64,000 bases of DNA from a virus, in the IMG/VR virus record IMGVR_UViG_3300030118_002460, positions 22,332 to 86,331 of that record; one strand, 5' to 3'. The notes under the pieces were generated by a model. That model ran no database searches and was not told where the DNA came from. It worked only from the letters and a program-made list of their open reading frames with translations. Numbering within the stretch: position 1 is the first letter of the stretch; the number at the start of each line of letters is the position of its first letter. Shown here piece after piece: positions 24,763-27,625 of the stretch. The translations under genes were made by a program, and so were the position numbers.

Positions 24763-24788
24763 TTCTTACACACTTCTGTGTTATACTG

Positions 24789-24815
24789 GGAGGTCCCAAG
24801 GGACCTCCTTTTTTT
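24789..24815 (+). terminator. Strong rho-independent terminator after gp23
   Basis: Perfect inverted repeat GGAGGTCCC/GGGACCTCC (9 bp, or 8 bp with a 4-base loop) followed by seven T. It separates the capsid transcript from gp3. Confidence 0.92.
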
Positions 24816-24856: not shown

Positions 24857-25489
24857 ATGGCAGCAGGTAATCCAAATTTAAAACCATCAGCAACTGCAGC
24901 ACAAGTAAGAACAAGAAACCCTACCAGAACAATTGGTGGAGTAGTAACAAGGGAGCAGATTGAAAATAGAAACTACCTGCAACCACAGGGGTTTAAATTT
25001 AATATATCAAGAGCACCCAATGTTGCTTACTTTGGAAATGCAGTCAATATTCCTTCAATGGAATTAAGGACAACAATGCAACCAAATTATTTGAAGGAGA
25101 TTCCCCAACCAGGTGAGATCATTGATTTTGAAGATCTTTCTCTTAGATTCTTGGTTGATGAGGATCTTGCAAACTATATGGAGATTCAAAATTGGATCAG
25201 AGGTTTAGGATTCCCTGAGTCTTTGGAGCAAATTTATAAACTTCAAGAGCAAACAGTTGGTGTACCCAATCCTGATCTTCAGGTTGGAATGAATATCTAT
25301 TCAGATGCCACACTGACTATCATGAACAATATGAATCAACCAAACTTTAAGGTTGTATTTGAAGACATATTCCCATATTCCTTGAGCACTCTTGAATTTG
25401 ATGCTACACTACCTGATGTACAGTACTTCACAGCTGAGGTCAGATTTAAGTACACTATATACCATATTCGTGATATTGGTTGTTGCTAA
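24857..25489 (+). CDS. 3: Tail completion and sheath stabiliser protein gp3
   Basis: 210 residues (T4 gp3 is 176). In T4 it caps the tail tube and fixes tail length. The segment QGFKFNISRAPNVAYFGNAV and the FLVDEDLANYMEIQNWIRGL region, followed by GFPESL, are typical of cyanophage gp3, and resemble tube-type proteins. The gp23-gp3-uvsY order is characteristic of cyanomyoviruses. Assignment rests on remembered family resemblance plus synteny. Confidence 0.85.
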   Translation: MAAGNPNLKPSATAAQVRTRNPTRTIGGVVTREQIENRNYLQPQGFKFNISRAPNVAYFGNAVNIPSMELRTTMQPNYLKEIPQPGEIIDFEDLSLRFLVDEDLANYMEIQNWIRGLGFPESLEQIYKLQEQTVGVPNPDLQVGMNIYSDATLTIMNNMNQPNFKVVFEDIFPYSLSTLEFDATLPDVQYFTAEVRFKYTIYHIRDIGCC

Positions 25490-25923
25490 TGATTGACTTG
25501 GATACAATCCAAAAAATGTGGAGAGAGGATGCTCAGATTGATCCTGATAACTTACATACAGAATCATTAAAAATTCCTATTCTCCATTCAAAATATTATG
25601 AACTTTACAATAACATTCTCTTGCTAAGGAAGAAATCTGAGCAGCAGAGAAAAAATATTAGACATGAAAGATATGAATACTTTTCAGGAAAAGCAGATCC
25701 TGATGTCTATATTCAAAACCCATTCCCTAAGAAGATAAGAGATAAAGATACTATGCAAAAGTATCTTGATGCTGATGAAAAACTCTCAAGTGCATCTCTG
25801 AAAATTGAATACTATGATACTATGCTTAAGTTTCTAGAAGAGATTCTTAAACAAATCACTAATAGAACATATCAGATTAAAAATGCAATAGAGTACATGA
25901 GATTCTCCTCTGGCTTAGGATAA
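25489..25923 (+). CDS. uvsY: Recombination mediator UvsY
   Basis: 144 residues from ATG 25489, which overlaps the gp3 stop (TAATG); a TTG 9 bases upstream is a poorer choice. UvsY loads the recombinase UvsX onto single-stranded DNA coated with gp32. Length matches T4 (137). The segment NLHTESLKIPILHSKYYELY and the helical C-terminal half are typical. Located just before uvsW as in T4-like phages. Confidence 0.93.
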   Translation: MIDLDTIQKMWREDAQIDPDNLHTESLKIPILHSKYYELYNNILLLRKKSEQQRKNIRHERYEYFSGKADPDVYIQNPFPKKIRDKDTMQKYLDADEKLSSASLKIEYYDTMLKFLEEILKQITNRTYQIKNAIEYMRFSSGLG

Positions 25924-25935
25924 CCCACCTCTAAA

Positions 25936-26127
25936 ATGGAAAAAGAACCAGATTACACAGTGTTCATGCAGATAGAAGATGTTCATCTGCTACATCACTG
26001 CGTCACAGAAACAATAGAAAAATGGCCAGGTTCACCTGCTAGACCAGCAGAAGAGCAAGAACACCTTTGGCAGGTAAGGGACTGGTTATACAGAATGATA
26101 TTAGAGCATAGATTTAATAACTCATAA
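25936..26127 (+). CDS. Small conserved-type protein of unknown function
   Basis: 63 residues, rich in His, Glu and Trp with a helical VHLLHHCVTETIEKWPG and a second helix ending in LYRMILEHRFNNS. It sits between uvsY and uvsW, which suggests co-expression with recombination genes. No motif is recognised. Confidence 0.72.
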   Translation: MEKEPDYTVFMQIEDVHLLHHCVTETIEKWPGSPARPAEEQEHLWQVRDWLYRMILEHRFNNS

Positions 26128-26134
26128 TTGAGCA

Positions 26135-26141
26135 CTAAATA
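26135..26141 (+). promoter_or_regulatory. Putative late promoter (CTAAATA) for uvsW
   Basis: CTAAATA 20 bases before the uvsW ATG. T4 uvsW is also transcribed late. Its expected start site falls inside the left arm of the hairpin at 26141-26178. Confidence 0.62.
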
Positions 26142-26178
26142 TCACCAGGTAGGATTATATTATGTCTAATCTGGTGAT
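26141..26178 (+). promoter_or_regulatory. Hairpin enclosing the uvsW ribosome binding site and start codon
   Basis: Left arm ATCACCAG (26141-26148) pairs perfectly with right arm CTGGTGAT (26171-26178). A further ATTA/TAAT pairing (26154-26157 with 26167-26170) leaves a 9-base loop containing the ATG; SD-like AGGA lies at the inner bulge. Read-through RNA would contain both arms, whereas RNA begun at the late promoter would lack most of the left arm. Looks like the T4 strategy for silencing late genes on early transcripts. Confidence 0.6.
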
Positions 26179-27625
26179 ACAGAAGGTAAACGAAGTTTAC
26201 CTGAAGATTACAACTGAACCTCATGTAGAATATGAACTGAGAGATAGATTCACCTTTGAGGTCCCTAACAAGAAGTTCATGCCACAGTACAGAAGTAAGT
26301 ACTGGGATGGATATGTGCATCTATTCAATATGAAGACCAAGAGAATCTATGTGGGTCTCTTGGATAAAGTTGTTGCGTTCTGTGAGAATGCAGGATACTC
26401 ATATCAGTTTGAACCTAATAAGTTCTATGGTCTCCCCTTTGAAGTCAATGAAATGATTTCAGAAGAGGGAGTGAAAGACTTTATGGCGTCTATCACTCAC
26501 TTACAACCCAGAGACTATCAGATTGAAGCAGTGCATGATGCATTGAGATACAATAGAAAATTACTCATCTCACCTACTGCATCAGGTAAGTCATTTATGA
26601 TTTACACTATTGTGAGATACTTTGTAAATGCAGGAAAGAAGATTCTTCTTGTAGTTCCCACAACATCTCTTGTAGAACAGATGTTTAAGGACTTTCAGGA
26701 TTATGGATGGGCAGCAGAGAACCACTGCCATAGAATCTATGCAGGTAGAGAAAGAGTCAATACTAGTGAAGTAACTATCACCACTTGGCAATCTGTCTAC
26801 CAGTTAGATAGAACCTTCTTTGAGGAGTATGATGTGGTGATTGGTGATGAGGCGCACCTTTTTAAGAGTAAGTCTCTCATTGGTATTATGGATAAGTTAC
26901 ATCATGCAAAATATAGATATGGATTCACAGGTACACTAGATGGCACACAGACCCATAAGTGGGTGTTAGAAGGTCTCTTTGGACCCTCTTATAGGGTTAC
27001 TCAGACAAAGAAGTTAATTGATGAAGGACACCTTGCCACTCTTGATATTCAATGTCTGGTATTGAAGTACAAACCAAGAAAGTTTGACACATATGAGGAT
27101 GAGATTCAGTTCTTGATTAATAATGAAAAGAGAAACAAATTCATCACAAATCTCGCTAATGATCTGAAAGGAAACACTCTAATTCTATACAGCAGAGTAG
27201 AAGCACATGGTGCTGTGCTTTTTGATATGCTAAATACAAAAGTTAAGGAAGGCAGAAAAGTCTTCTTTATTCATGGTGGTGTAGATGCTGAAGATAGAGA
27301 ACAAGTAAGAGCAATTACAGAAACAGAAAGCGATGCAATCATTGTTGCATCTTATGGAACATTCAGCACTGGCATCAACATCAAAAACCTTCACAATGTA
27401 ATATTTGCCTCTCCATCAAAGTCTAGGATTCGTAATCTGCAGTCTATTGGTAGAGTCCTAAGAAAAGGCAAAAACAAGGTCAAAGCAAAACTATATGATA
27501 TTGCTGATGACTTAACTATTGGGTCAAGAAAAAACTATACACTGAATCATTTTATTGAAAGAGTGAAGATCTATGTCCAAGAACAATTCAACTATGACAT
27601 CATATCAGTCAACATAAAAGATTAG
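26162..27625 (+). CDS. uvsW: RNA-DNA/Holliday-type helicase UvsW
   Basis: 487 residues (T4 UvsW is about 500). An SF2 helicase that unwinds R-loops and branched DNA and helps switch replication from origin-dependent to recombination-dependent mode. N-terminal domain with RSKYWDGYVHLFN (about 42-55). Helicase motifs: Walker A SPTASGKSF (about 138), DEAH in VIGDEAHLF (about 230), VASYGTFSTGINIKNLHNVI (about 395) and QSIGRVLRKGK (about 428). The start is inside a leader hairpin. Confidence 0.97.
   Translation: MSNLVIQKVNEVYLKITTEPHVEYELRDRFTFEVPNKKFMPQYRSKYWDGYVHLFNMKTKRIYVGLLDKVVAFCENAGYSYQFEPNKFYGLPFEVNEMISEEGVKDFMASITHLQPRDYQIEAVHDALRYNRKLLISPTASGKSFMIYTIVRYFVNAGKKILLVVPTTSLVEQMFKDFQDYGWAAENHCHRIYAGRERVNTSEVTITTWQSVYQLDRTFFEEYDVVIGDEAHLFKSKSLIGIMDKLHHAKYRYGFTGTLDGTQTHKWVLEGLFGPSYRVTQTKKLIDEGHLATLDIQCLVLKYKPRKFDTYEDEIQFLINNEKRNKFITNLANDLKGNTLILYSRVEAHGAVLFDMLNTKVKEGRKVFFIHGGVDAEDREQVRAITETESDAIIVASYGTFSTGINIKNLHNVIFASPSKSRIRNLQSIGRVLRKGKNKVKAKLYDIADDLTIGSRKNYTLNHFIERVKIYVQEQFNYDIISVNIKD

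What the first reader, a model, noticed from the sequence alone, without database searches (positions are those of the whole stretch)
26135..26178. uvsW leader: late promoter fires inside the arm of a start-codon hairpin
The 8-bp perfect hairpin (ATCACCAG/CTGGTGAT) encloses SD and ATG of uvsW. The CTAAATA late element ends at 26141, the first base of the left arm, so its RNA should start within the arm and lose the hairpin, whereas read-through from upstream RNA would be blocked. T4 uses this logic for soc, e and gene 49.
Basis: partly seen in the sequence, partly recalled or inferred. Interest (0 to 1): 0.7.

Follow-up and report, generated by a model that had tools for sequence, protein, structure and literature searches.

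The report
Hairpin keeps uvsW helicase silent early
In a marine cyanobacterial virus, the start of a DNA-repair helicase gene is folded into an RNA hairpin that a late promoter cuts in half, and comparison with many relatives shows that such hairpins are specifically kept on this gene, probably so that long read-through messages cannot make the helicase at the wrong time.

Summary
The uvsW leader of this T4-like cyanophage folds into an 11-bp outer stem (9 contiguous Watson-Crick pairs) plus a 4-bp inner stem around SD and AUG. The late element CTAAATA ends in the left arm; predicted +1 is A26147. Starting there cuts the cost of opening the initiation region from 12.3 to 2.1 kcal/mol. Of 354 uvsW starts located (mostly relatives), 171 have a late element 19-25 nt upstream (55 leader clusters). 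Their leaders fold far better than spacer shuffles and than 174 other late-promoter-driven starts (p about 1e-18). The five bases between late element and +1, absent from the late RNA, are fitted to each leader's own downstream sequence (z -2.3; controls -0.2). Codon choice favours pairing in coding-arm hairpins, and G.U exceeds A.C in the arms, suggesting RNA-level selection. Arm architecture switched about 10 or more times. Relatives without the late element have uvsW overlapping or abutting the upstream gene and mostly lack the hairpin. Best reading: the T4 e/soc/49/I-TevI logic, with read-through RNA silenced and late RNA translated. No RNA ends or translation were measured; early versus late is inferred. 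A new, well-supported member of a known kind.

The parts
26135..26141 (+). late promoter element CTAAATA (gp55 type)
   Evidence: sequence; all printed leaders of the 80 nearest relatives carry an [AC]TAAATA-type element about 20 nt upstream
26140..26150 (+). left arm of the outer stem (UAUCACCAGGU)
   Evidence: fold; shuffle tests
26147..26147 (+). predicted late transcription start (+1, A)
   Evidence: inferred from -6 spacing of T4/Aeh1 elements (PMC1524935) and the Y-R signature at spacer positions 5-6; not mapped
26151..26154 (+). Shine-Dalgarno AGGA (second AGG at 26147-26149)
   Evidence: sequence; 7 nt from ATG
26152..26167 (+). inner 4-bp stem and loop holding SD and AUG
   Evidence: fold
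26169..26179 (+). right arm of the outer stem, inside codons 3-6 of uvsW (AUCUGGUGAUA)
   Evidence: fold; synonymous-codon test p 0.007
26162..27625 (+). uvsW, 487-aa helicase
   Evidence: PF21241 UvsW_N 4.7e-11, PF04851, PF00271
25936..26127 (+). 63-aa ORF of unknown function (phrog_628), co-directional, ends 13 nt before the stem
25480..25923 (+). uvsY, co-directional upstream gene
   Evidence: phrog_231 9.5e-49
24857..25489 (+). tail gene (gp3/tail-tube type) with its own late element 24 nt upstream; possible source of read-through RNA
24788..24809 (+). strong intrinsic terminator after the major head gene
   Evidence: 9-bp stem, 6 GC, T-run

Best explanation
A cis-acting RNA hairpin in uvsW mRNA, coupled to a late promoter. 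Any RNA that starts upstream (for example through the tail gene and uvsY) carries the whole hairpin, which hides SD and AUG, so uvsW is hardly translated from it. RNA started by the gp55 late promoter begins at about 26147, lacks 7 of the 11 left-arm bases, cannot form the outer stem, and is translated. uvsW is thus insulated from its co-directional neighbours and made only when late transcription is on. Shown: sequence anatomy, fold, energetic relief, specificity to uvsW, and conservation of the hairpin but not of its sequence. Inferred: start position, silencing of the long RNA, and that the purpose is lateness, as for T4 UvsW, which unwinds origin R-loops (PMC3016281).
For: Fold and relief in the window 12.3 to 2.1 kcal/mol. 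Family: 55 clusters, mean z -1.33 and mean E -8.3 kcal/mol, against 174 other late-driven starts with z -0.04 and E -3.5, p 3e-18 for E. Relief of at least 3 kcal/mol in 80% versus 29% of controls. The five bases before +1, absent from late RNA, are matched to each leader's own downstream sequence: z -2.33, p 3e-9; controls -0.18. Codons chosen to pair in coding-arm leaders, p 1.5e-6. G.U 27 versus A.C 4 in the arms, p 0.02. Leaders without the late element overlap or abut the upstream gene and fold weakly: mean E -4.6 versus -9.2, hairpin in 16% versus 79-89%. L208/L209: uvsW 99.2% identical, leader replaced by a homing-endonuclease insertion, each with its own different hairpin. T4 precedent, with T4 soc and e recovered by the same measurement.
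Against: No transcript or translation data. Whether cyanophage uvsY RNA is early is not known here. Classical covariation within narrow groups does not exceed 3'-letter shuffles clearly. Some late-element leaders have no good hairpin (L027, L063, L068, L091). ACG-2014f has a hairpin without a recognisable late element within 50 nt. Promoter-hairpin association has only 3-4 phylogenetically independent pairs. Ribosomes ending the upstream gene stop at or next to the late element in most relatives and might open the stem.
Confidence: 0.77

Rival explanations
1. Translational coupling: the hairpin makes uvsW translation from long RNA depend on ribosomes that finish the upstream gene and open the left arm.
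For: In most relatives the upstream stop codon ends 3 or 6 nt before the last A of the late element (47 of 75 leaders), near enough for a terminating ribosome to cover part of the arm; relatives without the late element overlap or abut the upstream gene.
Against: In the window the upstream stop ends 14 nt before the element's last A. Coupling would not need a late promoter inside the arm, and coupled starts without the late element carry no such hairpin.
Confidence: 0.12
2. DNA-level inverted repeat: an operator overlapping the late promoter and start site, bound by a repressor.
For: The arms overlap the promoter and predicted start site in every leader.
Against: G.U exceeds A.C inside arms selected by Watson-Crick pairs alone (27 to 4; shuffle expectation 2 to 1). 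Arm sequence, position and loop length vary too freely for one protein, and other late promoters lack it.
Confidence: 0.05
3. mRNA processing, stability or repressor-protein site (RNase target or RegA-like binding) rather than simple occlusion of the ribosome.
For: Phage leaders are used this way elsewhere (PMC3014915); cyanophages carry regA.
Against: No conserved sequence beyond SD and promoter; what is kept is pairing over the SD.
Confidence: 0.05
4. Chance pairing or an accident of the conserved Asp-Leu codons and the SD.
For: SD AGGU can pair with ACCU/AUCU of the Asp-Leu codons in many members.
Against: Persists with the SD held fixed (z -1.53, p 6e-9), and the five non-SD bases are matched to their own leader; half of the leaders use an arm outside the gene.
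Confidence: 0.01

Closest known systems
T4 gene e, soc, 49 and I-TevI late-promoter/hairpin leaders (PMC3014915)
   Same: SD and/or AUG sequestered in a helix on long RNA; a late promoter in or beside the 5' arm gives RNA without it; T4 e and soc behave alike in the same measurement here.
   Different: Different gene (uvsW helicase) and phage group (cyanomyoviruses); the hairpin is kept across many lineages with arms that move between leader and coding sequence.
Hairpin-regulated homing endonucleases I-TevII, I-TevIII, segB, Aeh1 mobE (PMC2988022)
   Same: RBS sequestered on upstream transcripts, released on late transcripts.
   Different: Those are mobile genes; here the target is a core recombination helicase. 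In L208 an endonuclease-like gene sits just upstream and its stop codon overlaps the uvsW late element.
T4 uvsW itself
   Same: Orthologous helicase, expressed from a late promoter (PMC3016281).
   Different: In T4 uvsW is on the opposite strand to uvsY, and neither the T4 nor the T2 leader shows the hairpin, so strand layout rather than a hairpin may keep it off early RNA (inference).

Membership tests
T4-type late-promoter/hairpin translational control (e, soc, 49, I-TevI) | SD and/or AUG inside an RNA helix on the long transcript | tested here: met
   (in silico fold)
T4-type late-promoter/hairpin translational control (e, soc, 49, I-TevI) | late promoter placed so that late RNA lacks the 5' arm | tested here: met
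   element at 26135-26141; predicted +1 26147 from known spacing and base signature; 66% of hairpin pairs in the family have their 5' base before +1. Start not mapped.
T4-type late-promoter/hairpin translational control (e, soc, 49, I-TevI) | gene lies on longer upstream transcripts | tested here: inconclusive
   co-directional gene immediately upstream in 75 of 77 leaders, no terminator between uvsY and uvsW in the window; transcripts themselves not observed
T4-type late-promoter/hairpin translational control (e, soc, 49, I-TevI) | long RNA poorly translated, short RNA well translated | not testable with these tools
   needs reporters or ribosome profiling
T4-type late-promoter/hairpin translational control (e, soc, 49, I-TevI) | protein made only late | not testable with these tools
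   known for T4 UvsW (PMC3016281); no cyanophage data found
UvsW helicase | UvsW N-terminal domain and SF2 helicase core | tested here: met
   PF21241, PF04851, PF00271 above cut-off
DNA operator / inverted repeat | symmetry kept without preference for RNA wobble pairs | tested here: not met
   G.U 27 versus A.C 4, p 0.02

The most novel reading that the evidence does not exclude
In cyanomyoviruses the uvsW leader is an exchangeable promoter-plus-hairpin module: the silencing hairpin is kept, but its sequence and even its architecture (arm in the gene or in the leader) are repeatedly re-made, including after homing-endonuclease insertion, so function is conserved without conserved structure, and five promoter-adjacent bases that the late mRNA never contains are under selection for RNA pairing.
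Probability: 0.6. Interest if true: 0.62.

Novelty: new member of a known kind. Interest (0 to 1): 0.55.

Why it matters
UvsW shuts off R-loop origins in T4, so its timing matters. T4 encodes it on the strand opposite to uvsY; cyanophages put it directly downstream of uvsY and neighbours, and this hairpin would explain how it can still be kept late. It extends a control described for a few T4 genes to abundant marine viruses, shows it can be found by comparative folding, and offers a case where an RNA function is kept while its structure is re-made. Sequence-level mRNA timing predictions for cyanophages would have to take this into account.

Tried and rejected
Chance and the SD/Asp-Leu-codon artefact: rejected by fixed-SD and five-base-swap tests. 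A general property of late leaders: rejected by 174 control starts. DNA operator: disfavoured by the G.U excess. Classical covariation on three hand-picked groups gave only borderline (A1) or no (A2, A3) excess over shuffles, so it is not used as support beyond single examples. The hint that leaders behind an intrinsic terminator have weaker hairpins (p 0.02-0.04) rests on five related leaders. The promoter-hairpin association on the tree has too few independent pairs to test. The arm-in-leader/arm-in-gene label is mechanical; some leaders can form both. No paper found in the library reports a uvsW hairpin; the cyanophage Syn9 transcriptome paper sought for start sites is not held, and Derr and Kreuzer 1990 on T4 uvsW was known only as a citation.

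Full report
OBSERVATION. The coordinates are right. The RNA fold is an 11-pair outer stem (26140-26150 with 26169-26179) and a 4-pair inner stem that holds most of the SD, with the AU of AUG in the loop; z -4.84 against dinucleotide shuffles. The late element CTAAATA ends at 26141. In T4 the element occupies -13 to -6 and in Aeh1 CTAAATA begins at -12 (PMC1524935), so +1 should be 26147. In the family, spacer position 6 is A or G in 95% and position 5 C or T in 82%; other late starts also peak in A at position 6. RNA starting at 26147 needs 2.1 rather than 12.3 kcal/mol to open the initiation region; the relief is nearly complete for any start from 26146 on and absent for starts up to 26142.

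SURROUNDINGS. Major head gene, strong terminator (24788-24809), then tail gene with a late element, uvsY, a 63-aa ORF (phrog_628), uvsW, a 130-aa gene, the late sigma factor gene and the gp47-like nuclease gene, all on the + strand. No sigma-70-like site stands out above shuffles upstream of uvsY.

RELATIVES. Six scans of viral contigs plus phage records gave 454 loci (and annotated-region calls); 354 uvsW starts could be placed, window included. 171 have a late element 15-28 nt (nearly all 19-25) before ATG; they collapse to 55 clusters at 80% spacer identity. Against shuffles of the spacer only, mean z is -1.33 and 33% reach p 0.05. The same pipeline on 174 other late-element starts of at least 60 codons in the same loci gives z -0.04 and 4.6% (one of the 174, L121, is a uvsW that was missed). 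Hairpins of six or more pairs occur in 49 of 55 versus 46 of 174. The start-region relief is at least 3 kcal/mol in 80% versus 29%.

WHAT IS SELECTED. Two architectures exist: right arm in the first codons (window, L105 with 12 pairs) or in the leader before ATG (L053, L054, L107 and others). If the SD is held fixed the excess stays (z -1.53). If only the five bases between element and +1 are replaced by those of other uvsW leaders, pairing is lost (z -2.33, p 3e-9; controls -0.18). These bases are not in the late RNA if +1 is where predicted, so their matching points to a longer RNA. In coding-arm leaders the codons are chosen for pairing (z -1.34, p 1.5e-6). Inside arms chosen by Watson-Crick pairs alone, G.U outnumbers A.C 27 to 4 against 2 to 1 in shuffles. 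Formal covariation inside three narrow groups is weak; L214, close to the window, shows one C-G to U-A double change.

TURNOVER. On a FastTree of 145 UvsW proteins, absence of the late element needs 4 changes and the two arm architectures at least 10 switches on well-supported branches, under a mechanical label. L208 and L209 have uvsW 99.2% and the uvsY side 99.4% identical, yet unrelated leaders: L208 carries an inserted endonuclease-like gene (phrog_314 homing endonuclease, 4e-11) whose stop lies in the late element and a hairpin wholly in the leader; L209 has a 10-pair hairpin with the first codons. The T4 relative segE also sits beside uvsW (PMC2988022).

WITHOUT THE LATE ELEMENT. About half of the placed loci (P-TIM68, Syn19, P-SSM4, DLP6 types) have uvsW overlapping or abutting the upstream gene, no element and weak folding (mean E -4.6). 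Cultured phages with element and hairpin: P-SSM2, S-SM2, S-SKS1, S-B43, S-SRM01, Bellamy; ACG-2014f has a hairpin but no recognisable element.

MECHANISM. The anatomy matches T4 e, soc, 49 and I-TevI (PMC3014915), and T4 soc and e show relief in the same calculation. In T4, UvsW comes from a late promoter and removes origin R-loops (PMC3016281); T4 uvsW is opposite in strand to uvsY, whereas here it is downstream of it. I therefore read the hairpin as insulation of uvsW from upstream RNA. Translational coupling is the main rival, since the upstream stop codon touches or nearly touches the late element in most relatives. Timing, RNA ends and translation were not measured.

Noticed in passing
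L208 1454-1975 versus L209 1140-1190: Endonuclease-like gene (weak phrog_314 homing endonuclease match) inserted exactly between uvsY and uvsW; its stop codon lies inside the uvsW late element, as described for T4 seg genes; flanks over 99% identical to L209, which lacks it.
   Followed up: partly
L457 (ACG-2014f) leader before 2495: 9-bp hairpin over the SD (TAATAGG..CCTATTA) but no late element within 50 nt: an exception to the promoter-hairpin pairing.
   Followed up: no
L370 1018, L397 279, L115 299; window 7513: A few other late-driven genes have similar promoter-proximal hairpins that late RNA would lose; L370 and L397 are among the strongest of 174 controls, the window one is weak.
   Followed up: no
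L100, L109, L110, L112, L156 upstream of uvsW: Intrinsic terminator directly before the late element; these related leaders have weaker hairpins, as expected if a terminator replaces the need for silencing.
   Followed up: partly
window 24788-24809: Strong intrinsic terminator right after the major head gene, separating it from the tail gene-uvsY-uvsW group.
   Followed up: no
L081 (P-TIM68) 20001 and L168 (Syn19) 2995: uvsW overlaps the upstream gene and has no late element: the other expression layout, apparently translationally coupled.
   Followed up: partly
window 25936-26127: 63-aa ORF of PHROG family 628 (unknown function) between uvsY and uvsW.
   Followed up: no
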